Of a DNA stretch of 64,000 nt, positions 25,677 to 57,770 are shown in pieces; position 1 is the first letter of the stretch, and each line of letters begins with the position of its first letter. The notes under the pieces were generated by a model. That model was not told the DNA's origin, searched no databases, and saw nothing but the letters and a program-made list of their open reading frames with translations. Origin of the DNA: Puccinia triticina (taxonomy: Eukaryota; Basidiomycota; Pucciniomycetes; Pucciniales; Pucciniaceae); contig NC_070572.1 of assembly GCF_026914185.1 (NCBI RefSeq), positions 4,154,001 through 4,218,000 on the forward strand. Reading direction: 5' to 3'. A program made the translations under genes and the position numbers.

Positions 25677-27350
25677 GGACCTACTTCGCGCAGCAGCAAA
25701 AAACTCTTCGCGCACAGAATGGACCGTCCCCCGACGTCAAGCCCGCTGTGCGCGCAAGCCAAAAAATACTTTGCGCACAGCGACTTCCCCCAAAAGAAGG
25801 AGGGAGTTTTTCTGGATTTCTTTTTGATGGATCAAAAGAGGGGGTCTTGCTTGCCCCCCCCCCCCAAAAAATCTTGGATTTTTTGGAGGTGTCCTCCATC
25901 ATGTAATTTTTTTATAATATTAATCCAAAAAATAAGCTCTCCCTGCCCCGATAACCTACCCTGGGGAATTTTGACCTGCCAAAACTCAAGCGGTTGGGTA
26001 TGCAGCCCCTCAAAAAGAAAGTTTGAGGGGCAGCAGCTCCGGCTAACTCCCAGCCGCCGTGCCGTGCCGATGGCCGGCACAGGCCATTGAGCGGAGTTAC
26101 ACGCTCCCCGATGACCGGCCAGCACAGACTACCGGTCATTGAGGGGATCATGTACTCCTCTCAATGGCCACTCTGTTTTGGTCATTGACAGGAGTACAAA
26201 CTTCCCTCGATGACGTTCCAGTCACAAGGGGAGTGTTCACTCCTCTCAACAACCGGAGCAACTGGGCCGTCAAGGGGAGTACGTACACACATACTCCTCT
26301 CTTGATGACCGGAACATTCCGGTCATCGAGAGGAATAAATCCTTCCCTCAATGACCAAGTCCGTTCCGGTCATTGAGAGGCACACTTCCCTCAATGACCG
26401 GGTACGTTCCTGTCATCAAGGGAAGTGTTCACTTCTCTTGATGACCAGAGAAATTGGGTCATTGAGGGGAGTATGTAATCCTCTCAATGACCGGGCCCGT
26501 TCCGGTCATCAAGGGGAATGTTCACTCCTCTCGACGACTGGAGCAATCGGGTCATCAAGGGTGTACTCCTCTCAATGACCGGAACGTCCGGGGCATTCTA
26601 GGAGGAGTATGTACTCCTCTTGGTGACCTGGTTGCTCCGGTTGTTGAGAGGAGTGAACACTCCCCTCAATGACCGGAACGGGCCCGGTCATTGAGGGGGT
26701 GTTCACTCCTCTCAATCAAGGTGAACCAGAACGGACCCGGTCACCAAGGGAAGTATGTACTCCTCTCAATGACCGGGTCCGTTCCGGTCATCGAGGGGGT
26801 GTTCACTCCTCTCAATGACTGGGTCCGTGCCGGTCATCAAGAGGAGCACATACTTCCCTCAATGACCGGGTCCAAGTGAACACCCCCTCAATGACCGGCA
26901 ATTTGTGCCACATGCACACAGGTGCTGGCCGGTCATCGGGGGAGTGTGTAACTCCGCTTGATGGCCTGTGCCGGCCATTGGCACGGCACGGCGGCTGGGA
27001 GTTAGCCGGAGCTGCTGCCCCTTGAACTTTCTTTTTGAGGGGCTGTGTACCCAACCGCTGAAGTCCCCGGGGTGGGCTATCGGGGTAGCAGGTGCCTTTT
27101 TTGGATTAATATTATGTTTTTTTTTTTACATGACAAGGACACCTCCAAAAAATCTAATATTTTTTGGAGAGGGCAGTTAAGACCCCCTCTTTTGATCCAT
27201 CAAATTTTTTTTGGGAAAAATACCCTCCTTCTTTCGGGGGAAGTCGCTGTGCGCAAAGTATTTCTCCGCTTGCGCGCACAGCGGGATTGACGTCGGGGGA
27301 CGGTCGATTCTGTGCGCAAAGAGCTTTTTGCTGCTGCGCGAAGTAGGTCC
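25677..27350. mobile_element. MULE-like non-autonomous element with palindromic array
   Basis: Ends read GGACCTACTTCGCGCAGCAG on each strand. The flanking 10-mers are AAAGTTTTAC (25667-25676) and AAAGTTTTAT (27351-27360), nine of ten identical. The terminal inverted repeats are very long: both arms can be followed for about 450-490 bp, to GTGCTGGCCGGTCATCGGGG on the right arm and its complement on the left. Between them lies only the palindromic array described separately. No coding sequence is seen. The size of the duplication and the long repeats point to the Mutator superfamily. The whole unit could fold into one giant hairpin. Confidence 0.78.
26100..26960. repeat. Palindromic minisatellite array A1 (ATGACCGG...CCGGTCAT)
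   Basis: An array of units of roughly 55-75 bp. Each contains an inverted repeat of the form CTCTCAATGACCGG, a short spacer, then CCGGTCATYGAGAGG, and units are separated by GAGTRTGTACTCCTC or GTGTTCACTCCTC, which is itself palindromic. Within this array the spacer is mostly GTCCGTT or AACGGAC, giving GGTCCGTTCC-type centres. The array occupies the centre of the MULE-like element and shows local homogenisation. Confidence 0.85.
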
Positions 27351-27629
27351 AAAGTTTTATGATTTTATGCATTGAAAATTTTATGATTTCAACTTTGAAC
27401 ACCTTAGGCCCTGTTTGGCAGCAGTGATGTTATGTAATAACCACTGCTTTTCTATAACTGGGCCTCACCGAGACCCATATCGTATCACTCGCATGTTTGG
27501 CAGATTTGAGGAGTTATGAGGGTCATCACGAGTTTCCTCATCATCCCCGCCATTTCCGATATAGTACCCCTGGGGGTGTATTTGGGGTGATATTGGCACC
27601 CTTACACGACACACCCCCAACTCCACCTC

Positions 27630-27960
27630 TGTTACTCACCTCAATGGCCGGTACAGACTTTGTACCAGTCACCGAGCGGAGTACACACTCCAATTGATGG
27701 AAACGGTCATCAAGATTGATGACCGATCCAACACAATCAGCCACCAATGACCATTGGTCATCGAAGGGACTATGTATTCTCCTCAATGACCATTGGTCAT
27801 TGAAGGGACTGTGTACATATTCTCCTCAATGACCATTGGTCATCCAAGGGACCATGTATTCCCATCAATGACCAATGGTCATCAATGGGACTATGTGTTC
27901 CCCAAAAGGGACTCTGTATTCCCTTTGATGACCGTGTACCGGCCATTGTCAAGAGGAGTT
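27630..27960. repeat. Palindromic array A2 (ATGACCATTGGTCAT variant)
   Basis: Several copies of CTCAATGACCATTGGTCAT followed by CGAAGGGACTATGTATTC, plus ATGACCGG/CCGGTCAT-like units at each edge. The centre differs from array A1 (ACCATTGGT rather than ACCGG..CCGGT) but symmetry is kept, so both arms changed together. It lies between the left end of element 1 and its transposase gene. Confidence 0.75.
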
Positions 27961-28369
27961 AAACAATCGATTGGCCTTGCCGGTATGTATGCTTGATGGC
28001 CGGTATTTACCGGCCATGGAGCTTGTTATGTAGGCAAGCTGTATGACGCGAGTGGCAGCCAAACACTCGTGTTATGTTGAAAGATATTGGGTTTTGATGA
28101 AAACTTGGACAAATGAGGCACTCAATGGCATAGAGTTATGTGCTTACGCTGCACAGCAGTCTATTTTTGCCTTTGGTTTTCGCCATGCACAGCGGCAATT
28201 GATACAATCACATGCCCCGCTGGCAAGCGTCCCACCCCATCCGATCACCACCACAACGACCGACACTGCAGCCTACGGTCGGCCTCTCTCAACCACGGTA
28301 GCCTGCAATCCGAATATTGCAATGGTTTTCTTGTCATACGCCCCGGACACCAAAGTTCACGCTGTTTGA

Positions 28370-29430
28370 ATGGCCCTCGAGGGCCTGTCGTTTCCAGACA
28401 TCCGACGCCTTCTCGGATGTTCGATTTTGCGGCAGTCATTTGCTCGGTGGCTCGGCCTTTACCAAGAAACTCGTTGTGTGATCCGGGACCCGGATACTTA
28501 CAAAAACTGTGGTCAACCGGCAGAGCTCTCAAGAGACGATTGCACCTTTATGATTGAGCTCGTGCAACTCAAACCCGGCTTGTTTCTGCACAAGATTTGT
28601 GAGAAGCTGTACGACTCGACCAAAGTCCTGCTCAGCACCGCAGGCGTTCACTGGAACCTCGTCGAACGGTTGTCGATCACGCTCAAAAAACCCAAAACCA
28701 AGAACATTCGGAAATGTCTGGTCGCCAAATACTCCTTCATGGAGCGGATGGAGTTCTATCCAGCCAAGTTCTTGGTCTTCACAGGTGTGTATCTCTGATT
28801 TTTTTTTTTTTTTGGTCCCAAAGCTAACCCTTTTTGATTTTTTCTAGATGAAAGTTCATTCTGCGACAAGGATCTACTCCGATCACTTGCCAGGTCGCCA
28901 CAAGGCACCCCCTCGGAGCAATTCCTCGTCAATCAGAACGCAGCCCGGCTCAGCCTTCTGCCAGCGATCTCGATTGAAGGACTAGTGACCCTCACCACAA
29001 CATTTGAGACATTCACCGGTCGCCGATTCGAGCACTTTTTGGAATTTGACTTGGTGAGTCATGCTGCTGTCAGTGTCAACAGGGTGTCCACTGATATTCT
29101 ACACATTTCAAGCTCCCTCGAATGAATTGCTACCCAGACGTGAACTCGGTCCTCATATGCGATAATGCTTCTTACCATTGAGGTGACCGAGTTCAAGCCT
29201 TGTGCGATACCGCCGGAGTTTGACTGATGTATCTGCCAACGTATTGCCCGGAACTGAACCCCATCAAGCTTGGATTCGGAGCAATCAAGCAAGAGTTGCA
29301 AGCCTCGCAAGTATTGACTCGCTCGGACGACCCTGAGTGGGACATCGTTCAAGTTGTTACTCAAGAACTGACTGCACCACATTGCTATAAGTGGTACAAA
29401 CATTGTGGATATTGTGTCCCATCCCTCTAA
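28370..29430 (+). pseudogene. Decayed IS630/Tc1-type transposase of element 1
   Basis: Homologous throughout to the intact transposase at 34611-35693 and with introns at the same positions (exons about 28370-28784, 28848-29052, 29113-29430). The N-terminal helix-turn-helix part reads MALEGLSFPDIRRLLG; the catalytic core has ESSFCDKD (a glutamate and aspartates near the first acidic position) and ICDNASYH. It is broken by TGA at 29179-29181 and 29221-29223, and the last catalytic Glu of NPIE is Lys (NPIK, codon 29266-29268). In-frame homology (PDTKVHAV) continues upstream of the ATG through another TGA at 28367-28369, where the intact copy has CGA. All these changes fit C-to-T at TCG. Confidence 0.85.
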
Positions 29431-29773
29431 TGTCATCAATTACTTGTATCAAGGTTGTTGACCCACAAAAAAATTTCATGTTATTTTTCTAACATCACTC
29501 AATCCAAAGTTAGTCTGCAGCCTCTAACCCTACCAGACCTGTACCTCATCCTTAAATGTATTGAAATGAAAAGCTCTTTGGACCCTTTGCTCCTATCAAG
29601 TCTCACACCAGGCCAAAATAATCAACAACTTGATCTGAGAAATTGAATTCAAGCTTGTCTTGGCGTAGATTCGACGCGCCCGAGGTTTCCGCTTGAGGGC
29701 GAGACAGTGCACCAACACAGTTGACAGAAAGTGGTCCGACAATACAAAGAACCAGACAAGCTTGAAGGTGAGA

Positions 29774-30307
29774 ATGCCGCCAAAGAAAACAAAGGAGCTC
29801 CAACGAGCCAAGACGGCACGAGTTTTGCAGAAGAAGGAGTATTTGGTCACACAAGCTGGCCGCAAGAAACCAACACAGCCAAGCAAAGCACCGAGGGAGG
29901 ACGTGCAAGCATTGACAACCGCACCAGTGCCGCCGGTTATTGATCCATGGGACCAGGCGCGAAAGATACTCCACGTGAGCTTGACACCCTTGTGGCTCCC
30001 ATGCAGGGAGGAGGAGTTTGCGGAACTGGAGGGGGCCTTGGCAGAGTCAATCTCGGAATCAAGCGGATGCTGCTTATACATCTCTGCCATACCCGGAACC
30101 GGGAAAACGGCAACGGTCCACAGTGTTGTCAGCTCTTTGCAAGAGAAAGTACGCAATGGCCAGCTCAATCCGTTCAAGTTCTTTGAAATCAACGGGATGA
30201 AAGTCACCAAACCAAGCCAGACTTTCATCTTATTCTGGGAATTCATCTCGCAACATCTCCTCGCAGATGATTCCAATTCGCCTAGTGTTGTGTTAAGATG
30301 TGCATAA
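29774..30307 (+). pseudogene. ORC1 AAA+ fragment captured by element 1
   Basis: An open frame of 177 codons from ATG 29774 (MPPKKTKELQ) to a stop at 30305-30307. Residues from about 65 match the start of the Orc1 AAA+ module: ILHVSLTPLWLPCREEEF, CCLYISAIPGTGKTATVHSV (Walker A GxxGTGKT-type) and FFEINGMKVTKPSQ. ORC1 is the ATP-binding subunit of the origin recognition complex. The frame stops before Walker B, the sensors and the winged helix, so it cannot be a working ORC1. It sits between the two transposon genes, inside the element ends, and is probably a captured or duplicated piece of the host gene. The frame itself has no stop, unlike its neighbours, so capture may be recent or the frame may be retained. 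Confidence 0.8.
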
Positions 30308-30539
30308 GAAATGGGCACTACAACTGCTGCAAACCAGCATTGAATAATTCAGCCAAGTGGCGGAGTCTAAAAGGAAAGATTTTACAAGCACTGGGTATGG
30401 TAATGATAAACTATTATAAGTGATAAATTTGGATAATAACATGAGAGGAGGATGATAAGATTATACAACAGTCACAAGTTGGGCTAAAGCTTTGGATATT
30501 ATGCACAAAGGAATAATTGAGTGAAAAAAGGGGCTAGAT

Positions 30540-30625
30540 TGACTATCGAGGACTTAAGTGGTGTCTAGATTTACTATTGAGAATTTAAGTGGTGTCTAGA
30601 TTTACTATCAAGAATTTAAGTGGTG
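30540..30625. repeat. Short tandem repeat, 3 units of about 32 bp
   Basis: Three tandem copies of a unit like GAATTTAAGTGGTGTCTAGA with TTTACTAT(T/C)... in between. The last copy overlaps the 3' end of the accessory gene on the minus strand, so the gene's C-terminal codons seem to have been the source of the repeat. Confidence 0.6.
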
Positions 30626-31928
30626 TTGAAATTTTGATACATTGTCGCGAAGCTGAGCAACAATGCCATCACTCAAGCCCCACTGAGTCATCTTGTCCGC
30701 GCTGATGCTCTTTGAAAGGAACATTTTCGGATGAGTGATATCTTTCTCATCAAGCACGGAAAGGACCTGATCTTGCTTATTTGGATGAATCTTGACAAAA
30801 TCGACGTATTCACAAATCAGTTGTTTGTTGGGTTCAATGACCAAAGCAGTAGAATCTGCTGATGGGCTGCGGTGGCGACGACCATTATTGACATCGGATT
30901 TGTTTAGCTTTCTTTTTTTACTGGAAGATAGTTTCTCGAATTTGATGTCGCCCGGGGGTGCACAAACATTCACCCCCTCGGTTTTTGCGATCTAAAAACA
31001 ATGGAACCAATATTAGTTTGAGAATTTGAGAATGGGATCATTCAAAGCCACTCACTATGGCTTGAGCCCACTTTGTGACCACCCCGCCGGTCAATGGAAT
31101 GTAACAAGTAGGATCCTTTGGATCGATGTAGACCGGCATTCAATCCTTGTACTTTTTATTGGGCGGGTGGTTGGCATAGATTTGGTTCATGACCACATTT
31201 AGGGCTTGAAAATCGCCAGGGAAGAGATCTTGGACCGGAGGGACGTCATTCGATCCTTGTGAGCTGGATCCACTTGCCTCAATCACAGCTCGCTGAGTCA
31301 ACATGTGATTTTGGAACACAGCAGCGACCTTACGTTGCTTGGCTTTCGTGGCTGGGTTCTGCATTGCGATCTCCAAAGCTGCGGAGGTGTGGTCCATGCC
31401 AAGGTCCACGACGTACCTCATCCATCTGATGAATTTTTTGTTGTTGTTCAGATTCTGTTTTGCAGATTTTTTGTATTTGGGGGTGGTCTTCAGACCCATC
31501 AATATGTTCCAGTCAATGTCCAATTCAGAAAATCCCGAGGCGCCAGGGTTAAGAATCAGCTCTCCAGCCCCATTGTAGATCTTGTTGCATTCAGCTGCAA
31601 CAATCGTCCGGAACTCTTGACGGTTCATCGAGCCCGCTGAAATCGAGACATCAAAACACTTCTCGGGTTGGATCATGTTGTATGCCTCTTTATTACCTGG
31701 CTTACAAAAGAAAAGCTTGAACATCGTCTTGCAGTGGATGACCTGCGCCTACATGCAGCAAAAAAAGAGAAAAAAAATCAGCACCCGTTGGAAAGGATAA
31801 AATGCTCAACTCACATTGAGTCGAGCTGGTTCTGGGCCAATCTGACGAATGCGCCAGAGCTCGCTAGCGGAGAAGTATCCCGGCGGAGGGGTTTCCCTAC
31901 CCAAAAGATCAATCCCAAATCTCAACAT
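30608..31928 (-). pseudogene. Accessory gene of element 1 (SAM-like C-terminus), one stop
   Basis: Exons 31928-31815, 31748-31056 and 30991-30608 would give about 396 residues. Alignment with the intact homologue at 32534-33858 holds over the whole length, with both introns in equal positions: MLRFGIDLL.. against MSQLRIDLF.., HCKTMFKLFFCK against HCSTSFKLYCPK, and VLSVLDEKDITHPKMFLSKS against VLSILEEKDITHPKMFRSAN. One in-frame TGA at 31140-31142 breaks exon 2. The C-terminal 60 residues (ICEYVDFVKIHP...WGLSDGIVAQLRDNVSKF) look like a SAM-type helical bundle, which would suggest protein-protein or nucleic-acid contacts. It converges with the transposase. Confidence 0.8.
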
Positions 31929-32218
31929 TTGACGGTGGTGGGGGGAGAAATGCTGCTGTGGTGGGGCCCGGGTGCACTGGACTACTTGCTGCTGTGGCCA
32001 ACATGATCATTGATGACGACATCATGGCCTTTGAGGAGTAAAAATATGAGTCAAAAGATACCTGAACAGCCTTGAACCTTGGGCGAAAATCCAGGAAAAT
32101 CCTGCAGATCCGTCCAAGGATTGTTCAAAACACAATATGAAATTCAAGAGTGATGTGCATCACATTAGGTAAGTGCACAACATCACATGTAACATGATTG
32201 CTGCCAAACGGGGCCTTA

Positions 32219-33858: not shown

Positions 33859-33967
33859 CTGTATTCATCTCGTTATCATCCTTCTTTTTTCACGGTCTCT
33901 TTTCGCTGTTGGATCTCGTTCTTTTTGGTCTCTTTTCCCTGTTGGATATTGTTCTTTTTTCTCAGTC

Positions 33968-34139
33968 TTTATCTTCTCCCACCCGTAGATCTGGACATGT
34001 ATCCTTGTATTGTGAATTAAATGAACATGTATTTCTTTTTTCTTGCTTCTCTTTATCTTTTCCCTCTTAGAACACCTTATCTTCTCCCACCCGTAGATCT
34101 GGACATGAATCCTTGTATTGTGAATCAAATGAACATGTG
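33968..34139. repeat. Direct duplication of about 60 bp
   Basis: TTATCTTCTCCCACCCGTAG ... GTATTGTGAATYAAATGAACATG occurs twice, at about 33969-34029 and 34078-34138, in the 3' flank of the accessory gene. Confidence 0.7.
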
Positions 34140-34610
34140 CGCTTGTATTGCCAATTTACAAAGTGACAGGAGAAGACACATAGAGACTCAGACAGGTTAA
34201 GTAGACTCGGAGAAGACATGTAGAGACTTGGACAGGTTTTTTATTGCCAACTTACAGGATAAGACGGGTAGAGACTTGGACAGTAGACAGTAGAATCGGA
34301 CAGGTTAAAGACACATAGAGACTCGGACAGGTTAAGTAGACATGGATAAGACATGTAGAGACTCGGACAGTGGACTCGGACAGGTGGTCAAGTGACAGGA
34401 TAAGACGTGTAGAGACTTGGACAGGTTAAGCAGACTCGGACAGAGAGGACAATGAAGTTCATTTGAGAATCGGACAGGTTAAGACGTATAGAGAAGACTC
34501 GGATCGGCTATTGGCTAAGAGAGGACGTTGAAGTTCATTCGAGACTCGGACAGGTTAAGACATATAGAGAAGACTCAGATCGGCTATTGGCTAAGAGAGG
34601 ACGTTGAAGT
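34140..34610. repeat. Degenerate minisatellite between convergent transposon genes
   Basis: Irregular units built from GAGACTCGGACAGGTTAAG, AAGACATGTAGAGACTYGGA and, near the right end, a longer unit with GATCGGCTATTGGCTAAGAG and GGACGTTGAAGTTCATT repeated twice or more. It fills the gap between the two convergent genes. No coding frame. Confidence 0.7.
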
Positions 34611-39169: not shown

Positions 39170-40840
39170 GTTCATGAGTTCGAGAGCTCTAATGAAGGCA
39201 TAAATACATAGAGCTCATCATTTGATCATTGAACCCCTTTTTTGAAGACCTTGAATCAAGTTGACCATCAAGAAGATACAATCAATGTAACATTTTGATT
39301 CAATTGTTTAAAGATAGTCTTACAACTTCTAGGAGGATAGAAGTTTTGTGACTGAAGCGTTCCTCTTAGTTCAGCTGCCGAGGGCCCAATTATAAACTGT
39401 TTTGATATTGTTTGAAAATTCTTGCAGCGAACTTTTGCTTCAAAAAAGAGGCTTCAAACGACTCACGAGAATTTGGCAACAACTCTCAAAAGTTAGTCGA
39501 CGTCAAGCGGACCCCCTGTCGACAGTCGCAGAACCACTGTGGGACCAAGATTGGGAGTCGTTCTCCCAATTCCAATTTGAGAAATGGGAGTCGTACCTGG
39601 CCAATGTTCACGAGTCAGCAGGGCCTGTATAACCTCGATGAGCAGAGGAGGTTTCTCCAAGTCATCGAGGTCAAACTCAATGATGAGAAGGAATCTCTCG
39701 TTTGATGAGGTTGTATAACCTGTAAGACCGTGAGAGATTCTTCCCGGTAAATGTGATTTTATAAGGTCGTTGACCCGGGCTGGGAGGAGGAATCAATCCC
39801 GACCCGCATTGATTCCTCCCGGCCATTAAAGTTTTGTAACCTTGTTGACCGGGAGGAATCACCTCCGAACGAGAGAAATTAAGCAAAAGAGCGCCCCGGT
39901 GCCATTACGAGGGCCAGGAAGGAACCTTACCGGTTGACCAAGTGGTGGTGTATAACATTTTTTCAGGCAGAGATCTATTACAAGGCGAAATTCGAGAGAG
40001 TGGTGTTTCTTCCGGCCGGTGAAGTAACCTCGTCGCCCGGGAGGAATTCCTCCTGGTCAACGAGACTATGGCTCTTGAAGAACAATCAGCCGATAAAACA
40101 ATCAGCTAACGAAAAAGTTAGCTGACAAAAAATTAGATGGCGGAAAATTAAAATCAGCTCAGACGCGCACAGTGACACAACTGATTCGTGTGCGCCACGA
40201 GATTTGGTTTTCGTGATCTGTGTGCGTCTCGTGCGCGCTGAGCCTGTACCCCTCATGGAATCACAATAGCCAAAAAAATTACCAGAACTCAAGATTTGGA
40301 AAAAAGGGACCTCACCTCAGAGTTGGGGCGTTCGCCGTCAGGCGGGACTTAATTAAGCTCGGAGTTGGGGGGTCCCAACTCTTCCAAACCGTCCTCAAAC
40401 CGCGGCGGTGTTCCACAGATGCAAGGTGTCCTGGTTTGTCCTGCGCCCTTGATTCGACTCGGCAGCTTTACATCTCATGCAGAATCCCAGAGGCCACTAG
40501 AGCTCCTGCGATTGAGACTCTATCTTTCTAAACGTCCTATCCAGGTCGGCCACACTGGGACCAAGCGTAAGACTGATGGCCCTGCTGCAATGTGCAGAGA
40601 AACTGTAGGAAAGGCGCCAATCAACGTCTCAATGGTCCAAGGCGCGGATGATAGGAGACCCAATGTCCATAAATTGGCTGCTCTGTCGAGCACCTTACTG
40701 ATTCATCCCCATCCAATCCCTAACCATCACAAACCTTCCCTTTCAACCAAAGCCTTCCGCTCCCTTCCTTCGCGACTTTGATACCCTTATTATTCACCAA
40801 CCAACCCATCCTGCTTTTCGGAAAACGACCATCCCTGAAA
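39170..40840. other. Intergenic region with a palindrome-rich repeat
   Basis: 39170-39590 has no recognised gene; a 76-codon frame at 39402-39632 is of unknown nature. 39590-40080 is repeat DNA, listed separately. 40090-40840 includes the upstream region of the secreted-protein gene, with a CT-rich stretch (CCTTCCCTTTCAACC) before its start. Confidence 0.4.
39620..40080. repeat. Palindrome-rich repeat (GGAGGAAT...ATTCCTCC)
   Basis: Repeated words GGGAGGAAT(C/T) and (G/A)ATTCCTCC in both orientations, with TATAACCT and GTTGACC(C/G)GG between them. The clearest palindrome is GGAGGAATCAATCCCGACCC with its partner near 39788-39822. It begins with GGGCCTGTATAACCTCG, similar to the ends of element 3, but I could not find a matching right end. 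Confidence 0.55.
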
Positions 40841-42681: not shown

Positions 42682-43504
42682 CACTGCGGGCATCTCGATG
42701 TCGCTGCGGTCCGCAGCGACATCTGACGATTCAGTGGGGATTCGAACCCCGCGCGGCAAGTATTGCAGCGACACTTGGCCGGCTGTCCATGACAGCCACC
42801 GGGGTATGTACACACAACGCACCTCTCGATGGCCGGCACAACGACCGGTCACCGAGAGGAGTACGCACTCCTCTCGATGGCTGGCCCGAGGACCGGCCAT
42901 CAGGAGGAGTCCTTGTGCCGGCCGTTGAGAGTTGTCCAGACTCCTCTCGATGAACAGCATAACGACTGGTCATTGGGAGGAGGAGTCCACACTCCTCTCG
43001 ATGACCAGCACAAGAACCGGTCATCGAGAGGAGGAATCCATACTCCTCTCAATGCCAACACAGGCCGGCTTCGAGAGGAGTACATGCACCTCGATGCCCG
43101 GTCTGTGCCGTCCATCGAGGGAAGTGTGTATGTACTCCTCCCGATGACCGGGCCTTGGGCCAGCCATCGAGAGGAGTGCGTACTCCTCTCGGTGACCGGT
43201 CGTTGTGCCGGCCATCGAGAGGTGTCTGTACTCCTCTTGACGCCGGTGTTTGCTGGCATCAAGAGGAGTGTGAACTCCTCCCGATGACCGGTCCATGAGC
43301 TGGTCACCAAGAGGAGTGAGAGGAGTGTGTAATCCTCTCGATGGCCGGCACAAGGACCGGTCATCGAGAGGTTATGTATGTATTGGTGGCCGGCTGTCCA
43401 AAGGCAAATCGGCCGGCCAGATGTCGCTGCAGCTGACGCTGCATTCTGATATGCAGCGTCATGATGTCGCTGCGGGCCGCAGCGACAGCGAGATGCCCGC
43501 AGTG
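42682..43504. mobile_element. CACTG-ended element with TCA duplication and palindromic array
   Basis: Ends CACTGCGGGCATCTCGATGT and, reversed, CACTGCGGGCATCTCGCTGT, flanked by TCA on both sides (42679-42681 and 43505-43507). CACTG termini with a 3-bp duplication are typical of the CACTA/CMC superfamily. Just inside each end lies a palindrome GTCGCTGCGGYCCGCAGCGAC. No coding sequence; the interior is array A3. Confidence 0.8.
42790..43370. repeat. Palindromic minisatellite array A3
   Basis: Units of about 60 bp with CTCTCGATG(A/G)CCGGCACAA and the inverse GACCGGTCATCGAGAGGAG, separated by GAGTACGCACTCCTC-like palindromes. Spacers here are CACAACGA or CACAAGGA, unlike the GTCCGTT of array A1, so units within an array resemble each other more than units of other arrays. 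Confidence 0.85.
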
Positions 43505-43930: not shown

Positions 43931-44056
43931 GCGTCCAAGTGATGCTCAGTGCCCCTCGCGTCCGCTGGATGCCCTCCGGACATCCTCTGGACATATCTCA
44001 GTGAGAAACGTCCGCGGGATGCAGGGCATTTCCAGGAATGCGCCCCGTGGTGTACC

Positions 44057-45120: not shown

Positions 45121-45699
45121 GCTTTGCTGTTTCTGGTTTTTTGAAAGGAGTATTTGGGTGTTCACGCAAGGCTCAGGCTCCGTTCAAAACCTGAGTTCTG
45201 GGTTTTCACCTGAAACCCTACTCCATCTGGGAGAGCAACCATTTTCCTACACTTCCTTCTGGTTGGGGCGCCATGGGAAAGAACAGAGACTCTTCCCCAT
45301 GCACCTCCCTTTACAGTGAATTGAGCTCCAGAAGCAACAGTGCACTTAGCTTAGCACAACGCGTACCCAGCCTACAAAAACTAACTTTTGTGGTGTGCAC
45401 AAATAATATGCGCTTACAGAAAAAATTGTGCGCGTCAGATTTCATGGGCCAACTTTGTGTGTGCTAATTTTTTGTCATCCGGTTTTTGTGTGCTAATTTT
45501 TGGCCATCTGGTTTTTTGTGTGCTAACTTTTTGTCATCTTTTTTGTGAGCTGAATTTTTGGGTCAGGCTTTAGGCACGCCACAAAAATGCCGGATGCACA
45601 CCAAAAAAGGCGTGAACTCCGGACCACTCCAAGATTTTTGGAGGGGAGGATTGTTCACTCCAAAACCAGCCCCCATTTGGAGTGCCACACCAAAACCAG

Positions 45700-46430
45700 C
45701 CCCCCCTCAATGGCCGGTCTGCGCTGGCCATTGAGGGCAGTATGTACACTTGATGACCGGCACAGGCCGGCCATTGAGGGCAGTACACTTGATGACCGGC
45801 ACAGGCCGGTCATCGAGCGGACACACCCCTCTCAATGACCGGCATAGAGAGACACACTCCTCTCAATGACCGGCATAGACTGGTCATCGAGAGGATCCAT
45901 CCCTCTCAATGACCGGCACAGACTGGTCATCGAGAGGATCCATCCCTCTTGATGACCAGCATAGGACGGTCATTGAGAGGATCCATCCCTCTCGATGACC
46001 GGTTTGTACCAGTCATCAAGAGGACACACCCTCTTGATGACCGGCATAGACCGGTCATCAAGAGGTCACACCCCTCTTGATGACCGGCATAGACCGTTCA
46101 TTGAGAGGACACACACCTCTTGATGGGCATAGACCGGTCATCAAGAGGACAGATCCCTCTTGATTACCGGGATAGACCGGTCATCAAGAGGACATGCCCC
46201 TCTCAATGACTGGTCTATCCCGCTCATCGAAAGGACAGATCCCTCTCAATGACCGGTACAGACCAGTCATTGAGAGGGATATATCCTCTTGATTACCGGT
46301 CTATGCCGGTCATCAAGAGGGGTGTGTCCTTGTGATGACCGGTACAAACCGGTCATTGAGAGGGATGGATCCTCTCGATGACCGGTCTATGCCGGTCATC
46401 AAGTGTACAACCGGCCATCAAGGGGGGGCC
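45700..46430. repeat. Palindromic minisatellite array A4
   Basis: The most regular of the arrays: units of about 50 bp with CTCTCAATGACCGGCATAGA and CCGGTCATCGAGAGGA, separated by CACACCCCTCTTGATG or TCCATCCCTCTC. Spacers are mainly CACAG, CATAGA or TACAGA. It sits centrally in the level 1 element. Confidence 0.88.
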
Positions 46431-48032
46431 GGTTTTGGCGTGGCACGATGTTTACTCCATACCAGCCTGGAGTGCCGGGTTGGGCACTCCAAATGGGGGC
46501 TGGTTTTGGAGTGAACAATCCTCCACTCCAAAAATCTTGGAGTGGTCCGGAGTTCACACCTTTTTTGGCGTGCATCCAGCATTTTTTTGGTGTGCCTAAA
46601 GCCAACACTGGGTAGTTACAATAATGGTAACGGCATCGTAACGGTACCGTATTGGTTTTTGGTGCGTTACCGTTGCCGTTACTGGTAACGACTCTGCGCT
46701 ACCGCTAATTTAATATTTTTATGTTATTTTTTTGGGTGCGATACGATATTTTTTTGCGTCAGAGGTTAGAATTTTATTCAATACGATATTGGGAGATGTG
46801 TTTATGAATTGTTACTGGTAACGAAATCTAGGTACAAAAGAAGGATTTGGCATTCAAGCGCCCACATTCTTCTTGGGTGCAGGAACCAGAGCTGCCAATG
46901 CTCTTCCCGCCTCCTCAAATTCACCGGTGAGAGGGACTTGCTCCCTCAACCACATCAAGCTGCTGACGCAGCGAGACATGGTTGAAGGGAGTAGGCCACC
47001 TCGCCTACTGCTGCAAACATCGGAAGCAGCCGAGAACAATCTTTCGACTGCGCATGAACTGCCTGAGCAACCGAGGTAAGCGCGGGCCATCTGAGAGAGC
47101 AATGGATAGGTGGTGCAGTTGGCCTTCCACCACCTCAAAGGAGTAGATTTGTCGTGTATTTGCTTGCTGGTGAATGACAGATCCGCTGTGAGGAATGTGT
47201 CAACTTCGTTTTTGTGCGGAGTTGAGGGCTTCTGAGCCATATAAGAGGATGCCAGGCAAGCCATGAGCCAGGACGGCTCTGCCTTGGAGTCCGGTGATTC
47301 TTCAATTACAGTGATGTCTGTTTTGGGGGCGTCCAACGTTGAGACAGAGACGCCTGATTTTTCCTTGTATTCCTTGAATCTGCAATTGAGGAGTTCAACG
47401 CACTCCTTGACCTCAGAACTGGTTGAACCAAACGCCAGTTTGAAGATATGGATCCGGTAGCACGGATGCAGAATGGTCGCCAGTTTGAGTGTCTTGCACG
47501 CCATGGCTTCGGCCAAGTACTTCTCAACGCGCGCCAGCATCAAGCAGTACATTGGATACAACATGTTGGACTCCTTTGACCGGTCTAATTTTCCGGAGAG
47601 CTGCTCCTTAAGCTCAAGATATTTGGGTATCACATGCAAGCCCGTCCCCTGATTTCCTTCCATTTGCGAGGTTAGTTTGACAAAGACCTGTTGACTTTTG
47701 TTGTGTCAGTACACCAGCAGAATTACTATGTTTAGTATTAAACCCACATACCTCAAGCTCGCGGTTCAAGTCGTCAAATTTTTTCCAATCTCAAGGAGAA
47801 AAAAGTACATCGTTGAAGATTCCAGCTTTGTTCTGCTGTTGATCTTCCTTAAGAAGTTGATCAATAACTTCTCTTGCATCAATTGCTTTGCGGCGGCTCT
47901 TGTATTTTATGTTCCATCGGATGCCATAACCGGCAATCAATGGCGCTACCTTTATGCCTAATCTCTTGGCCGTGCGATTAAACCTTCCTCGCTGAGCGGC
48001 AGATTGGGTGATTTGTTTGATCACTGTATTGA

Positions 48033-50800: not shown

Positions 50801-53189
50801 TGTCACTATAGAGACTCAGGCTCACATTCATCCTCTTCGGAGATTCTCCCCAGAATGGGGAAGAATCCTAAGACAGACTTTTTGGTTTTTTCCGGAGGAA
50901 GAGTTTTGAGTGATAAGGAATTTAGACCGGGATTGACTATTAATGCCAGCTTGTGACAGGAGCACCGGATATGCATAGTTTCTGGATCCCACGAGTCTGC
51001 GTTTGGTGGCTCATTGGAGTAGAATAAGTTATACATCTCGTTGGCCATGGTGTTGTTGTTTGAGCCGGAGTCGGTAGTCTGTGCCAGCATCTTTTGAACC
51101 AAGTTGTTCTTGTTGAGGAGGCTTGCGATAGGGCGTGCAAGCAAATGATCAAAATGTTTCCATGGAATCATTTTTAGAGTCAAATGCCGGGCTGTGTACT
51201 CCCAATCGGAGTTGATGAAAGCCACTGAGGCACCGATGAAGGCAAATTGGTTCCCCTTCGTCGTCCATACATCATGGATTAGAGTAAACTTTGTGTCAAG
51301 GTTCTTTGATAAGAAATTTGAGTACATATCAGTAAAACAGTCACAAAAAACAAAATATATTAAGCGTACCTTGAGCTCATCAAACACAGTTTTTTTCAGC
51401 ATCAAGTAAAGCTTTTTGGATTCATCGGCCGACCACTTTTGACCAAATAGAAAAGCCTTTGGGTTTGCGTATTGAAAAGCCGCACAAAGTATTTGGTCTT
51501 CAATCCAAGACCATGGTAGCGCTTGTCGAATCTGCCATATCATAATCAGTTGGTTTAGAACCCAATTGACAAAGGTTTGCTTATTCTGAAGAAAACCACT
51601 AATGATGGTTTGCTTGGGATCACCCCCGCCATTGGCTTGGGCAAGATTGCGCTCAGCAACTGACGGGGGTAACTTTGCACCCAACTTCTTTGCCTTCTCT
51701 CAATTCACACAGCCATGACTTTTCTTCTCCGACTGAGTTGAACCGTCACGGTGTACCTTCAAGTTTCCTCTAGATGTCGCGTGCGCACAATAAATCTCTC
51801 CATACCATTTGCATTTATAATTAATCTGAGCGTTTCCTTTGTCTTCTTTCTTCCAAAAAGGTGGTTTGAAAAAATCTAGAATATCATCGTACTCCTTTTC
51901 AAGCTTTTTTTTGGCTTCCCTTGGACCGATCTCGATGGATTCATTGGTATCCTGACTGAATTCATGGGCTTCGCCGGTTGAGTTCACCTAAATACCACAC
52001 AGGTTTGTAACCTCAATAAAATATCTTATGTGATAACATGCTTCTTCTAGTCTACACGCACCTCCTGACTTGCCGAGACATTTTTGGTTACCTTCTTCGG
52101 GTTTTTCTTCTTTTTGACAATAGCAACAGTGCGGGTGTCTGTCGCGGACGAATCCTCTTCAATCACCCTTTTTTTCTTGGGCTGCCGCTTGCCTTTGGGG
52201 CCCGTCGCACGGCCAGATTCCAAAGAAGGGGCCGTCACCTCTCCAGCTGGTTTGGTTAATCTGGCCCGGGAGTCCGAGCCAGTTGGCACCATGCCTGGTT
52301 CAACAACTGCAGACGAAGCTTGATTTGAACGGCGGAGTTGAGACTGGTCGGTTGCATGTCCGCTGGCGTTTGCATCTTTTGTTGGCAGTAGTTTGAGTAT
52401 TTCGTGCCATTTTTGATTGTTTGGAATTTTAAAAGGTGGAGGAGCCGAGGGGCAACAATAAAATCCTACTATGTAGCTGAGAAATTGGACACAGGGGTGA
52501 AACATGTTATAGCGCGCTACCGCACGTCAACAGCCTCAAGGGTGAAACACGTTACAGGGCGTTACCGCCTGTTACGCGGCGTTACCGCCTGGTACGGGGC
52601 GTTTTGGTACCTAAGGGCCTGTACCATAGCCCGCGGATTCCAAGGATCTTGCCCGGGATTCACAACTTTCTGTGAAATCCGAGCGGCCCAGAATCCGGAG
52701 TACCATAGCGCTTATTTGTCAACCTCATATTCCAGGGAAAACAGACCATTTTCCTCAGTTTGGAAAAACGGCTCCCCCCTATTTTTTTGCCTCGGATTCT
52801 GCACTCCCCTCCCTCACTCCCCCTTCCCTGGTACTTGGACCATCAAATACAGAAGATTCAGAAAAGGATGGCAGTCCGAAAAATTTTTTGGGCCTCCTCC
52901 CAAAATATCTTTGAGCCTGCAGGCCGTGCATCTGAACTGGGAGCTGCAGATGTCTGGCGAATCCGCCAAACTGGGTCCAAAGCTCAAAACAGGATTTGAA
53001 ATCCAGAACAACTCATCTCCCATACGCCAATGACTCAGACTGGTCCGGCAGGGCCAACCTTTTTGTATCTCCCCAGCTTTCCCCCCATCTGCCACCGACA
53101 ATCAACCCTTCAATCCAACAATTGCCACCCTTACAACTTGAATTTCCGACGTTGCAATACCAGTAACCAATTTTAAAATTTCCATTCAG

Positions 53190-53856
53190 CATTACACTCA
53201 GTCCTTTGACCAACCAGCGCCAATCACCTTGGCCTCCAGAGCTGGCCCATTTCCTGCCGCTACTGGCACCGGTTTGGGTTCCCCAAGCGGATTAGGTCCC
53301 AGAACCAATCACCGCACCCCTGATGCGGGCCCGAATGGGTTTGGTCCCCCCAGCACTGGTATGCATTCCCCTTATGGTTTTGGCTTCACCACCCCGCTCC
53401 CCTAAGCATTTCTGTATCCATTACTTTGTAGGCTACGGCCCGCGGGGTTTTGACACCGAGCAAAACTCCGAATTTTCTAGCCAAACAGGAGGTGCGGGCT
53501 ATGATACCGGCAGCGTGGTCGGCTCTGAGAACCCTGAAGATGTAGAAGACAAACCTCTGCAGGAGCTCCCAATCCTTGGAGTCGAGCACTTGGGAAGCAT
53601 GGTGGAGTACCTAGCCCACTGTCATATAGCAATCAACGACTACCACACGCAATTACAATTAGAACACAACAAGATAACCCACTGGACATATTTTCGCCGC
53701 GCCCATCCGGATAAACTCCTACTTCTGAGATTCGCCGACGGGCCAGCACACCAGTTGTGTGACGGGCTCCCCCGTTTCATAGAAAATCTTAGAAGAAACC
53801 GGCGAGAAATTGAAAATGTCATTGATTATGCTCCATACAATCCTAATATTTTATGA
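53190..53856 (+). CDS. Second gene of element 3 (function unknown)
   Basis: Only the 3' part is modelled: exon 53190-53358 and exon 53432-53856, joined by a GT-AG intron of 73 nt. The product starts ...HYTQSFDQPAPITL, is rich in Gly/Pro/Thr, continues as GYGPRGFDTEQNSEF, an acidic stretch (GSENPEDVEDKPLQEL), and ends in a helical, charged segment (HLGSMVEYLAHCHIAINDYH ... FIENLRRNRREIENVIDYAP). The upstream part (LFVSPQLSPHLPPTINPS in the same direction) lies in the inverted duplication, but the connecting splice is not clear. I do not recognise the family. It occupies the same position as the accessory genes of elements 1 and 2, convergent to the transposase, without visible similarity to them. 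Confidence 0.6.
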
Positions 53857-53925
53857 TACCTTTTTGTAACTTTATGATTACTTTTTCTTGCTCTCATTAT
53901 ATCTCAGAAAACCATTGTCTTCTGT

Positions 53926-54002
53926 CATGGCGCCGCCATCATCATCCGTCATGGTGCCGCCATTGTCATCCGTCATGGTGCCGCCTTCGTCAGCCGTCAT
54001 AA
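53926..54002. repeat. Short tandem repeat GTCATGGTGCCGCC
   Basis: Three copies of a unit of about 30 bp (GTCATGGYGCCGCC followed by ATYRTCATCC) in the 3' flank of the accessory gene. Confidence 0.75.
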
Positions 54003-54397
54003 CTGGCGAAGGTGTGTGTGCTTGAATTGTCATATTTATGTATGGCAAGCCTTGTTAGGTGGACTTTAGCGGAATGAGCGCAGGTCCTTAACAAGTTATG
54101 AAACCAAAACTGGGACCTATCCTGACTTTGCCAGTCTCTGTAGGACGATCGTAGCTTAGTTTGTGGCTGGGTTCAAGCCCAGACAGCAGCGGCGGGGCGT
54201 CGAAAAAGAAGTCCCAAATTTATGTAAAGTGTGGAAAATCTTGCATTGCTCAAACGTTAAAAAAAGAATTCAACTGAAGAGAATGTTGTTTTGGGCAAGA
54301 CAACACGAAGAAAAAACAAGCCATTACGTCCTCTCTTGAGGGTCTTATGAAGAAACGAAAGCAAACAAGGAAGAGAAGTGAGAAGGAGGCGGATTAA

Positions 54398-54922
54398 TCA
54401 TGACGGGATGGACGGAGTGTGCGGTCCGTTTGGACAGTGGTTTGGGGCTTGCTGGTGGGTGGTTGATCGGGCGCAAGCCCGGACAGCAGCGGGGCTTTGT
54501 CGACAAAGAAGTCCCAAATAAGCTCCACCTTGTGCTCCTTCAAGGGAACCCCAGCATGCCCCTTGCCCGCGACCTGCTCCAACCCCTCGTCCTCTTCGCC
54601 CTCCTCCAGGCCCTCCTCTGCATCCCCCACCAGGCCAAGCAGCGGAAAGAGTCCAACAACGTCGGCTCGGTCCAGCGTCTGTCCCAGCGCCGCTCGCCGC
54701 ACATGGATCGATGTAAATAATCCAAGCGTGGTTGGTTGAAAATTGAGATTGCAACGTCGGAAATTCGAGTTGTAAGGGTGGCGATTGTTGGATTGAAGGG
54801 TTGATTGTTGGTGGCAGATGGGGGGAAAGCTGGGGAGATACAAAAAGGTTGGCCCTGCCGGACCAGTCTGAGTCATTGGCGTATGGGAGATGAGTTGTTC
54901 TGGATTTCAAATCCTGTTTCAA
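54398..54922 (-). pseudogene. Inverted, diverged copy of the element 3 accessory gene 5' part
   Basis: Open on the minus strand in the same frame as the upstream part of the + copy (ANDSDWSGRANLFVSPQLS), then continuing into a Gly/Arg/Ala-rich tail unlike the + copy. In another frame the tail reads LPLLGLVGDAEEGLEEGEED and VELIWDFFVDKAPLLSGL, which could be the original coding frame after a missing intron. I regard it as a broken or alternative gene copy. Confidence 0.45.
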
Positions 54923-55464
54923 GCTTTGGACCCAGTTTGGCGGATTCGCCAGACATCTGCAGCTCCCAGTTCAGATGCACGGCCTGCAGGCTCAAAAATA
55001 TTTTGGGAGGAGGCCCAAAAAATTTTTCGGACTGCCATCCTTTTCTGAATCTGCTGTACATTGTATGTATAGTGCATCAAGCCCGTCTGGGCACATGCAC
55101 AAGTTCGGGGGTGAAAAGCCCAAGCCCGCTTGGCCAAGCCCAAAGCGCGCGTGGCACACCCGAAACCCCCGCTTGGCACATGGCCAAGTTGGCGGGGTTC
55201 GGCACAAAGCCCCGCTTGGCCGAGGCCAAACGAGGGTGCCACGCACACTAAAGCTCACCATTCCATGGTGAAGGGGTCATCGCACCCCTTCCTCACTGTC
55301 ATCACTTTCCAGATTTGCATGTTAGGGTTATTCATTGCTAGCTATATCACATAGATGTATATTACTACTATTTAGATACATTTTTTATCTTTATTTTTAT
55401 TTTTATTTATTTATCGATGTGTAATACATAATAATAATAGTAATAAGCATTAGAATACCTAATT

Positions 55465-56720
55465 TTAGGAAGGGGCAGCCAAGATGGGCCCAGTGATTTC
55501 CTGGTATTCAGAACATGGGCGGTAAAGACGCCGACAATGAGAAAAAAAATGGGTTGACTTTTCCGGGGTAATTGCTTCGTTGATTGCGTTCTTGATCTCG
55601 GTAACTAAAGCTGTTCGATTGGGCGGCTCTTTTGATCGGACATAGGTTTTAATCGAGTGAAAGCTGTACTCGATTGGATTGAGGAACGGGGAGTATTTCG
55701 GAAGGAATTCGATCTGAATCGATTTCGAGGTGCTGAGCGATTGTCGGACCTCGTCAAAGCGCTCGCCTCGGTGGATCGGAGCATTATCGATGATGATTAT
55801 AGAATCGGGAGGAAGCCTAGCACCAAGGCTCCCAAGGAAGAGGCAGAACTGATCCGCGCCTACCCCCTTAGCCTTGGTGTTGTCCGCGTTGAGGAGTTCG
55901 TGATAGACGAAACCCTCCTCCGACAGGGCACCTATCAAGGTCACCTGCTTCGCCTTGGGTACAAGACTCAAGACAGCAGGTTGGCCTTGATTCAACGCAA
56001 AAGTCAGCAAGAAACCAAAAAAGAAAGGAAGAGAAAACACCTACCGGAGGGAGCATATCCGTGAGATCGACCCGAGTGAAGATCGAATCCAGCCTCATCG
56101 ACGTACACGACCTTCCGCCCAAGATCAAGCCCACGGCGATTCACAAAATTAGCCCGTTGCTGAGTAAGGTAGGGCTGATTCCACGACGCCGGTATGTTGG
56201 TAGCCTGTTTCCATGATATGTCCATATCATGGATCAGGTTGCTGATTGCCTGAGTCGATATTTTGACGTCGAACTCGTCCTTGAGGAACTTAGCAAGCTC
56301 TGGAAGTGTAGTCGAGGATCGCTGATCAAGCTGCATGAGGATCTCAGTCTTCATCTTGTTGGTGAACTTGCTGGGGCGTTTTTTTTGCGTCTTGACAAGG
56401 TTTGGATCTTCAGCTTTGATACGCTGAATTTGACGTCGCGATACTTTGAAGGTTTTCTCAGCATCAACCACCTTCATACTGCTTCCAATAACATTCTCGC
56501 GTATGAGTTCGCGGACCTCGGGTTTAATCATTGCATTCGGTTTTCGTTCTTTATGGGCAAGTCGATCGTTTTCGTAGGTTCGTTTATCATCGATCTTGGC
56601 TTTGGCCTTTTTGATTACTTCCTGTTGAGAAATCTTCTTGTTCACATCCCGCAGATCCTCGACGAGCGCCTTGGCCTTTTCTTGATTTGCCTTGAGCTCC
56701 AGTTCCTCGGAGGTGGACAT
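55465..56720 (-). CDS. IS630/Tc1-type DDE transposase (element 3), intact
   Basis: Exons 56720-56045 and 55985-55465 joined by a 59-nt intron (398 residues). N-terminal half: a Lys/Glu-rich segment, then a helix-turn-helix (AEKTFKVSRRQIQRIKAEDP, then LPELAKFLKDEFDVKIS). The DDE core has VVYVDEAGF with LHSGRSHGYAPSGQPA across the intron, IIIIDNAPIHRGE and FLNPIEYSFHSIK; 38 residues separate the second Asp and the Glu. Spliced in this way the motif YAPSGQPAVLS matches the family well. No stop or missing catalytic residue. It should act on the 16-bp ends of this element and perhaps on the MITE at 13965-14174, which has the same ends. Confidence 0.9.
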
Positions 56721-57089
56721 CTACAAAAAAGTGGTCAACAAGAAAAAAACCCTCAATCAGAAAAATGGACTCAGCAGTCACTAAGTAGTAGAAATTTACT
56801 CACCTGGAAAGATTTTTTGTTCTTGTGTTGTTGTTGAGTGGGTGTGGTGGGTGGTTGAGGTGTAGTTGCCGGCACGGCTGCCGGTGATCTCATCGGCCCA
56901 GAGCTTGGGGCCGGCCAGGCAAGACTTGGGCATGTGCCAAGATCCGCGGCCCGCCCAACCTCCCCGATCAAGCCCCCTGGGCACCCCCCAAACCCCCGGT
57001 GGCGCTCGGCCGCGCGGGACTGGGGCATGTGCCCAGACGCGCTTGATGTACTATACATACATATGTATATACACATAAGACCATCCACC

Positions 57090-57770
57090 AGATTCTTGAT
57101 GGCCGGTTTGTTCCGGTCATCCAGAAGAGTCATCACCTGTCATCACTCCTCTTGATGGCTGGCTCGTTCCGGTCATCGAGAGATGTCCATCATCCCCTCG
57201 ATGACCGGAACGGAGCGGTCATTGGGAGAACTAATCACTCCCCTCAATGGCCGGTTTGTTCCGGACATCAAGGGGAAGATGTATTGCTTTTGATTCCCAG
57301 AACGAGCCGACCATTGAGAAGAGTAATCACTCCCCTCAATGGCCGGTTCGTTCCGGTCATCGAGAAGAGTAATCACTCCCCTCAATGGCCGGCTCGTTCC
57401 GGTCATCGAGAAGAGGAATCACTCCCCTTGATGGCCGGCTTGTTCCGGTCATCAAAGGCATTTCGATGACCGGAACGGAGCGGACATTGAGAGTTCCGGT
57501 CATCGAGACAAGTAATCAGTCCCCTTGATGGCCGGAATGAACCGGCCATCGAGCCGAGCGAGTCATCGAGGGGAGCGAGTCATCGAGGGGAGCGAGTCAT
57601 CGAGGGGAGCGAGTCATCGAGGGGAGCGAGTCATTGAGAGGAGTACATTATCCCCTCGATGACCAGTTCGTTCCGGACATCGAGAGGAGTACATCATCCC
57701 CTCGATGACCGGAACGGAACGGAATTGGAGAGGAGTAATCACTCTCTTTGATGACCGGGGAGTGACTTCC
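57090..57770. repeat. Palindromic minisatellite array A5
   Basis: Units with CCCCTCAATGGCCGGTTCGT and TCCGGTCATCGAGAAGAGTA in alternation, plus a run of five GAGCGAGTCATCGAGGG-type direct repeats at about 57555-57640. Spacers here are TTCGTT or AACGGAG. It lies between the transposase start and the right end of element 3, the same relative place as array A2 in element 1. Confidence 0.83.

What the first reader, a model, noticed from the sequence alone, without database searches (positions are those of the whole stretch)
25677..57770. One palindromic minisatellite shared by transposons of at least four different types
Arrays A1-A5 (26.1, 27.6, 42.8, 45.7, 57.1 kb) consist of the same inverted unit, CTCTCAATGACCGG..CCGGTCATYGAGAG, yet they sit inside elements with different ends and target duplications: 10 bp (GGACCTAC ends), TCA (CACTG ends), 8 bp (GGGTCAGG ends), TTA (GGCCCTG ends) and TAA (GGGCCTG ends). 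Normally subterminal repeats are specific to one transposase. The same module in unrelated elements suggests that it spreads between elements, or that it does something useful to all of them, such as hairpin RNA production, boundary or replication effects, or binding of a host protein. I know of no description of this, but could not search.
Basis: partly seen in the sequence, partly recalled or inferred. Interest (0 to 1): 0.88.

Follow-up and report, generated by a model that had tools for sequence, protein, structure and literature searches.

The report
Shared motif arrays in unrelated transposons
Several unrelated kinds of jumping DNA in a rust-fungus genome carry clusters of the same 14-letter inverted motif in their middles; its letters stay fixed while the sequence around it differs, as if one protein served many different parasites.

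Summary
The core observation holds and extends through the genome. CTCTYRATGACCGG (up to 2 mismatches) occurs 98 times in the window against 1.36 expected; CTCTCAATGACCGG (up to 1) occurs 14,917 times in the genome against 20 for the reversed control, very roughly 2,300-2,600 arrays. Arrays fill the middle of small TIR elements with unrelated ends: CACTG ends with varied 3-bp duplications (11 of 11 copies), CGGACCTAC with 8 bp (6 of 9), GGGTCAGCC with 8 bp (2 of 3), TAGAGATCGCC with 8 bp (one copy), GGSCCTGT with TTA or TAA (two elements). New: 15 of 15 array groups share one arm consensus (apart from two CpGs and position 2), while centres and linkers are group-specific; no recent exchange was seen among 13 groups (matches of at least 77 bp are 76.6% or less). 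One arm CpG is kept even where flanks have almost none. Best reading: a binding platform for one protein used by many unrelated transposons, analogous to, but not shown to be a member of, VANDAL/VANC. The protein is unknown; no function was shown. The DDE_3 gene in A5 lies in a nested Tc1-like unit; that beside A2 probably does.

The parts
25676..27351 (.). T1 element (A1): TIR CGGACCTACTTCGCGC, 8-bp duplication AAGTTTTA, 1,676 bp
   Evidence: 7 other copies opened (L030-L036), 7 of 7 with arrays
26080..26968 (.). A1 array, 32 arms
27407..32215 (.). T8 element (A2): GGCCCTGTTTGGCAGC ends, TTA duplication; contains a DDE_3 unit and other reading frames, probably nested
27640..28021 (.). A2 array, diverged (7 core matches; units mostly lack CCGG)
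28370..29125 (+). DDE_3 transposase pieces of a Tc1-like family with many copies, beside A2
42682..43504 (.). T2 element (A3): CACTGCGGGCATC ends, TCA duplication, 823 bp
   Evidence: varied 3-bp duplications in 11 of 11 copies
42823..43370 (.). A3 array, 20 arms
45560..46609 (.). T3b element (A4): left end GGGTCAGGCTTTAGGCAC; right end degenerate, no duplication found
45704..46424 (.). A4 array, 33 arms
52615..57925 (.). T9 element (A5): GGGCCTGTACCATAGC ends, TAA duplication; array plus nested elements
55057..57067 (-). Tc1-like unit nested in A5 (inverted ends with TGTATGTATAGTRCATCAAG, DDE_3 gene 56720-55465); bounds approximate; the 98% and 95% copies read elsewhere have no array in about 0.9 kb upstream
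57093..57758 (.). A5 array, 29 arms
39634..40064 (.). four scattered weak core matches, not counted as an array

Best explanation
The arrays are multi-site DNA-binding platforms. Each 14-bp half-site (CTCTCGATGACCGG; 8 to 62 per complete element tabulated, in inverted pairs with loose spacing) is recognised by one sequence-specific protein, made by the host or by an unidentified transposon. Unrelated TIR elements keep the platform in the middle, inside their family-specific ends, because loading many copies of that protein helps them. The most likely benefit is an open, anti-silenced state that lets their different transposases act, as VANC proteins do on motif arrays of Arabidopsis VANDAL elements. 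Shown: the shared motif, the unrelated ends and duplications, arms held while spacers vary. Inferred: the protein, and that it counters silencing or aids transposition.
For: Arm consensus C(T/C)CTCGATGACCGG, apart from transitions at the two CpGs, in 15 of 15 array groups; the commonest centres (1-8 nt) and linkers (2-12 nt) differ by group (the diverged A2 array and some others were not grouped). Seed test on 13 of the 15 groups: with one part of the arm as seed, the unselected rest agrees in 11.9 and 12.6 groups on average, spacer positions in 7.6 and 7.6 (p 1.3e-4 and 7.0e-5). CpG loss at arm CpG1 (CG 508, CA 333, TG 297, TA 7 against 90 expected) shows methylation-type decay, while CpG2 is better kept (812 CG, 274 TG/CA). 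In two T3a copies CG is 1-2% of CG+TG+CA in flanks and 81-87% at arm CpG2; CpG2 exceeds flanks at p<0.01 in 11 of 12 elements. Repeated family-specific motifs counted in T1, T2, T3 and T5 lie in the flanks and not in the arrays, so the array is a second, shared layer. Variable spacing fits independently bound half-sites. Precedent: VANC binds short motifs in tandem repeats, and VANC6 motifs occur in AT9TSD1, which is not related to VANDAL (PMC5735166, passages seen).
Against: No binding protein, methylation, small-RNA or expression data were available. Arrays were found through the arm motif, so families with changed arms are invisible; the seed test reduces but does not remove this bias, and variable spacer length by itself blurs spacer consensus. 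Recent T2 copies (nine aligned, two longer ones left out) show no lower divergence in arms (2.65%) than in spacers (1.85%) or flanks (2.72%); only outside CG/TG/CA do arms vary least (0.8, 1.4, 2.8%). CpG decay inside arms means that many copies, or their source copies, were methylated, so protection is not complete. The nearly constant inverted pairing is not explained by half-sites alone. Arm CpG2 does not exceed flanks significantly in T4 L023.
Confidence: 0.5

Rival explanations
1. Hairpin or small-RNA module: arrays are transcribed into dsRNA that feeds or saturates RNA silencing, and shared arms let small RNAs act across families.
For: The A4 array folds at -496.9 kcal/mol against -247 for 20 shuffles, z -22. 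Inverted pairing is kept (745 of 847 neighbours).
Against: A hairpin needs complementarity, not the same arm sequence in 15 of 15 groups; an advantage from shared small RNAs would have to be added. Better retention of one arm CpG than the other points to a DNA-reading factor. No small-RNA data.
Confidence: 0.17
2. Passive shared satellite: one module was copied between elements long ago (ectopic repair, capture); arms look conserved only because hairpin tips mutate faster than stems and because the search selects matching arms.
For: Centres of several groups look related (CACAGA, TACAGA, GACAGA). Palindromes recombine easily (general knowledge). One array start is shared by a TAGAGATC element (L011) and a Ty3-like element (L009). 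Young T2 copies show no overall arm conservation.
Against: No recent exchange: between-group matches of at least 77 bp are 76.6% or less. Within-hairpin correction keeps arms complementary, not identical across families. Arm CpG2 is kept where flanks and spacers are CpG-poor.
Confidence: 0.22
3. All these elements are moved by one transposase that reads the arrays, and the end assignments are wrong.
For: Arrays occur in 16 of 16 opened top-scoring T1 and T2 copies, two being the window's own.
Against: Different TIRs with different duplications: 3 bp in 11 of 11 (T2), 8 bp in 6 of 9 (T1), 8 bp in one T5 and in 2 of 3 T3a.
Confidence: 0.03
4. Ordinary genomic satellite lying equally outside elements.
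For: 4 of 30 arrays in L009-L028 could not be assigned (two in L016, one each in L014 and L017), and two in L009 lie in a retroelement context.
Against: 16 of 30 lie between recognised inverted ends and 8 more have flanks, one end or unit types of those families (my tally; L019 and L020 are the weakest).
Confidence: 0.05

Closest known systems
VANDAL elements with VANC anti-silencing proteins (Arabidopsis)
   Same: Short motif clustered as fast-evolving repeats in non-coding parts of a transposon; motifs can occur in an unrelated element (VANC6 motif in AT9TSD1; PMC5735166, passages).
   Different: VANC21 motifs are 9 bp, arrayed in one orientation and rare in other elements; here 14 bp, inverted, in several unrelated TIR families. 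No VANC-like gene was identified.
Subterminal repeats of CACTA/Spm and similar elements (recalled)
   Same: Many short sites in both orientations inside the TIRs.
   Different: Those are specific to one transposase family and lie near the ends (recalled); here family-specific motifs lie in the flanks and the shared array in the centre.
MITE or foldback elements with internal tandem repeats, e.g. Tetris (PMC4079207, search listing and start of abstract only)
   Same: Small TIR element with an internal repeat array.
   Different: Internal repeats of those are particular to the element (recalled); here the same motif recurs in different types.
Bacterial REP/BIME palindromes (recalled)
   Same: Dispersed inverted short units.
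   Different: Not inside TIR elements; no RAYT-type enzyme was looked for here.

Membership tests
VANDAL/VANC-type system | short motif clustered in repeats in non-coding parts of the elements | tested here: met
VANDAL/VANC-type system | element encodes a VANC-like protein that binds the motif | tested here: inconclusive
   A2 and A5 share only DDE_3 similarity; no autonomous copy of an array family was identified
VANDAL/VANC-type system | binding causes loss of methylation | not testable with these tools
   no methylome; only CpG decay
EnSpm/CACTA (T2) | CACTA/CACTG ends with 2-3 bp duplication | tested here: met
   11 of 11 with 3 bp (outermost base changed in L026)
EnSpm/CACTA (T2) | CACTA transposase | not tested
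   no autonomous copy read
hAT-like or other 8-bp superfamily (T1, T3, T5) | 8-bp target duplication | tested here: met
   T1 6 of 9, T3a 2 of 3, T5 1 of 1
hAT-like or other 8-bp superfamily (T1, T3, T5) | matching transposase | not tested
   no autonomous copy read
PIF/Harbinger-like (T8, T9) | 3-bp TWA duplication | tested here: met
   TTA and TAA, two elements
PIF/Harbinger-like (T8, T9) | Harbinger transposase | tested here: inconclusive
   of the frames given to Pfam the only transposase catalytic domain was DDE_3, in units that are nested (A5) or probably nested (A2)
Tc1/mariner (for A5) | the DDE_3 gene belongs to the array-bearing element itself | tested here: not met
   98% and 95% identical copies (L063, L064) lack arrays in about 0.9 kb upstream; inner inverted ends at 55057 and 57067
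Tc1/mariner (for A2) | the DDE_3 gene belongs to the array-bearing element itself | tested here: inconclusive
   of three A2-type copies read upstream, one (L068) has an array and two (L069, L070) do not; inner ends not defined

The most novel reading that the evidence does not exclude
A shared 'public good' among selfish elements: one trans-acting anti-silencing or transposition-assisting protein, perhaps encoded by a single transposon family, is used in cis by at least five unrelated TIR transposon types across the genome through a common 14-bp motif array that they acquired independently or long ago and maintain by selection.
Probability: 0.25. Interest if true: 0.92.

Novelty: new variant of a known kind. 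Interest (0 to 1): 0.74.

Why it matters
Motif arrays in transposons are usually private to a family (general knowledge; for VANC21 motifs). A genome with roughly a couple of thousand arrays of one constrained 14-mer in unrelated transposon types would show that cis signals can be shared across superfamilies. It gives a concrete sequence with which to find the responsible protein and a test of whether transposons cooperate against, or are jointly policed by, the host. Judged from the listings of searches (open-licence PMC papers only), I found no description of it.

Tried and rejected
1. Array as a promoter element of an autonomous transposase: in A2 and A5 the array lies about 350-370 bp upstream of a DDE_3 start codon. 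Not upheld as the general case: upstream stretches of 8 related genes had arrays in 2 of 8 (L066, L068), and the A5 gene lies in a nested Tc1-like unit. 2. A second gene shared by A2 and A5: they share only DDE_3 similarity. 3. Arrays as parts of LTR retrotransposons: one Ty3-like copy (L009) has them; of 10 genomic matches including L009's own, five others were read (L058-L062) and none has an array there (one lone arm match in L059). 4. Recent exchange of arrays: none seen among 13 groups. 5. Relatives in other rusts through translated array frames: no hit at E 0.001 or at E 10, which does not show absence. 6. tRNA-like origin: ARAGORN finds no tRNA in the window. 7. The 10-bp duplication of A1: replaced by 8 bp. 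8. A duplication for the GAGCATC family (T4) stays unsettled: TAA on both sides in L018 and L023, TTA/TAA in L022 and a C18 copy, neither in L015. 9. The genome array number rests on 18 arrays from four groups, 16 of them T1/T2 copies, and is rough. 10. Left out of counts: arrays with fewer than 8 arms; from the 15-group table the second array of L009, both arrays of L014, L022 3523, L026 4701, the window duplicates L029 and L037, and T2 copies L040, L042, L043; from the seed test also groups F5c (L020) and U17 (L017) and the first L009 array.
Full report
Source. The window is C15:4154001-4218000 of an unnamed 122.8-Mb genome in 18 contigs. The named matches of a transposase in the window are rust proteins, mostly Puccinia, among them partial Puccinia triticina proteins at 89 and 92% identity. 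Size and contig number fit a P. triticina haplotype (recalled, not proved).

Is it real? CTCTYRATGACCGG occurs 98 times with up to 2 mismatches in the window; 100 shuffles give 1.36 on average and at most 5. In the genome CTCTCAATGACCGG with up to 1 mismatch has 7,374 + 7,543 matches, the reversed pattern 12 + 8. Eighteen arrays that were not chosen by the motif (four in the window, seven further T1 and seven further T2 copies) have 5.7 such matches each, giving about 2,600 arrays, or about 2,300 from the four window arrays alone; their mean length is 770 bp. This is an order-of-magnitude estimate.

Where do arrays sit? I opened 20 loci on contig C1 that hold an exact 14-mer. Of 30 arrays with at least 8 arms there, 16 lie between recognised inverted ends, 8 more have the flanks, one end or the unit type of those families, 2 are in a retroelement context (L009), and 4 are unassigned (tally); the unassigned one of L014 lies inside a 4.7-kb stretch with T1-like ends. 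L019 and L020 are the weakest assignments. The loci were chosen by the motif, so this says nothing about elements without arrays; such elements seem to exist (L067 holds sequence like T6 ends and no arm match).

Element types. T1, CGGACCTACTTCGCGC: 8-bp duplications, perfect in 6 of 9 pairs with both ends (window plus 5 of 8), 7 of 8 bases in one, none in two; two further pairs lacked a found end. T2, CACTGCGGGCATC: 3-bp duplications of varied sequence in 11 of 11 copies. T3, GGGTCAGCC/GGGGCAGGC/GGGTCTGCC: 8 bp in L022 and in a C18 copy, 9 bp in L015, 8 with one mismatch in L011, 8 only with one base of slack in L023, none in L013 and A4; one more copy lacked a found end. T4, GAGCATC: unsettled. 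T5, TAGAGATCGCCAAG: GTAGACAA on both sides. T6, CAAACTTAACCC: GGAGAGGGG, 9 bp. T7, GGGTTTACTTTGCGC, resembles T1; duplication unclear. T8/T9, GGCCCTGT and GGGCCTGT: TTA and TAA. In 16 of 16 opened top-scoring T1 and T2 copies there is an array, two of them being the window's own. T3a is young: 29 of 40 scored end matches, the query's own included, are 100% identical over 87 bases, out of 312 candidates.

Anatomy. In 15 elements tabulated the array lies between flanks of 134-404 bp, except 855 bp on one side of L013. Motifs that I picked by eye as repeated near the ends (T1, T2, T3, T5: 4 to 14 per element) lie in the flanks and not in the arrays; for T4, T6 and T7 only two flank copies, little more than the ends, were counted, with one array hit in T4. 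So the array looks like a second, shared layer inside private ends.

Arms versus spacers. In 15 array groups the arm consensus is C(T/C)CTCGATGACCGG, apart from transitions at the two CpGs, while the commonest centres range from A, CA and CTGA to CACAGA, AACGGAC and CACAAGGA, and linkers from AG to 12-nt words. Because arrays were found by their arms I ran a seed test on 13 groups: with GACCGG as seed the unselected part of the arm agrees in 11.9 groups on average and spacers in 7.6; with CTCYYRA as seed 12.6 against 7.6 (Mann-Whitney 1.3e-4 and 7.0e-5, all positions; leaving out one border position each, 7.8e-5 and 5.5e-5). Variable spacer length blurs spacer consensus, so the contrast is partly mechanical. 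Between-group array matches of at least 77 bp never exceed 76.6%; four shorter ones (35-54 bp) reach 80-86%. A result that does not help: within the young T2 family arms are no less divergent than spacers or flanks overall (2.65, 1.85, 2.72%), and only outside CG/TG/CA positions are they lowest (0.8, 1.4, 2.8%) (nine of eleven copies).

CpG evidence. At arm CpG1 the states are CG 508, CA 333, TG 297, TA 7; independence would give 90 TA. This is the pattern of methyl-CpG decay. At CpG2, seven bases away, CG is 812 against 274 TG/CA. In twelve elements CG/(CG+TG+CA) at CpG2 is 0.39-0.87 and exceeds the flanks at p<0.01 in 11; in two T3a copies the flanks have 1-2% and CpG2 81-87%. The ratio is not a pure retention rate, since TG and CA need not all derive from CG. 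The simplest reading is that the CCGG half of the arm is under selection in elements that are otherwise losing CpG.

What transposases? A2 and A5 contain DDE_3 genes, and the array lies about 350-370 bp upstream of the start codon in both. This looked like a promoter array, but of 8 related genes elsewhere only 2 have arrays in about 0.9 kb upstream (L066, L068), and the two close relatives of A5 read (98% and 95%) have none. Inner inverted ends in A5 (55057 and 57067) show a nested Tc1-like unit. The same is likely, not proved, for A2. No autonomous copy of an array family was identified, so superfamily labels rest on ends and duplications.

Retroelement. One Ty3-like copy (L009) runs into an array that begins like the one in the T5 element of L011. 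Ten genomic matches exist; besides L009's own, five were read and none has the array there. It looks like a local rearrangement or insertion, not a family trait.

Mechanism. Conserved arm sequence, free spacing and free spacer sequence point to independent half-sites for one protein. A hairpin role predicts complementarity only; the RNA of A4 would fold very strongly (z -22), so it remains a rival. The nearest analogue is VANC: motif clusters in non-coding repeats of VANDAL elements, bound by an element-encoded anti-silencing protein, with VANC6 motifs also in AT9TSD1, which is not related to VANDAL (PMC5735166, passages; PMC10398659, passages). CpG methylation in a rust is described for P. 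striiformis (PMC12129025, passages). I rate a shared binding platform at 0.5 and the anti-silencing version as its most likely form, unproved.

Novelty. Searches of the open PMC library for rust minisatellites and TIRs, P. triticina MITEs, the motif letters with Puccinia (one powdery-mildew population paper), subterminal or minisatellite repeats, palindromes with methylation, MITE/CACTA/hAT with Puccinia and unrelated transposons sharing motifs listed no paper that appears to describe it; I judged from titles and abstract beginnings. Most subscription papers and preprints were not searchable.

Noticed in passing
window 28370-31748 and 32737-35693: Two related multi-frame units (DDE_3 transposase plus a second, uncharacterised protein; 34-68% identical over the longer matches) lie side by side in inverted orientation.
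   Followed up: partly
window 29669-30307 (+): Reading frame with an AAA ATPase match (AAA_16, E 1.9e-7, just under the curated cut-off; resembles ORC1/CDC6 by recall) inside the A2 element.
   Followed up: no
window 58180-59243: Another tandem array, 20-bp unit GACATGATACATGATGCACG, in both orientations; may be a different element-borne repeat.
   Followed up: no
window 45454-45561 and 59954-60106: Repeated TTTTTGTGTGCTAATTTTTTGTCATC-like units at two places; 59983-60190 matches the flank of A4 at 87%.
   Followed up: no
L015 3784-5686, L022 4284-6471: T3a flanks are almost free of CpG (o/e 0.08 and 0.02) although 29 genomic ends are identical, so the recent source copy itself was probably CpG-starved.
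   Followed up: partly
window 42682-43504; 57860-57925: Sequences like a tRNA B box (GGATTCGAACCCC, GGTTCGAATCCCC) near the ends of the T2 and T9 elements; B box recalled, no tRNA called.
   Followed up: no
L066, L068: Tc1-like genes have an array within 1 kb upstream in 2 of 8 copies, more than a rough 2-3% expectation (my estimate from the array number); perhaps a preference for inserting beside arrays.
   Followed up: partly
L009 5583-6728: Large imperfect inverted repeat of LTR-like sequence with an array at its centre.
   Followed up: no
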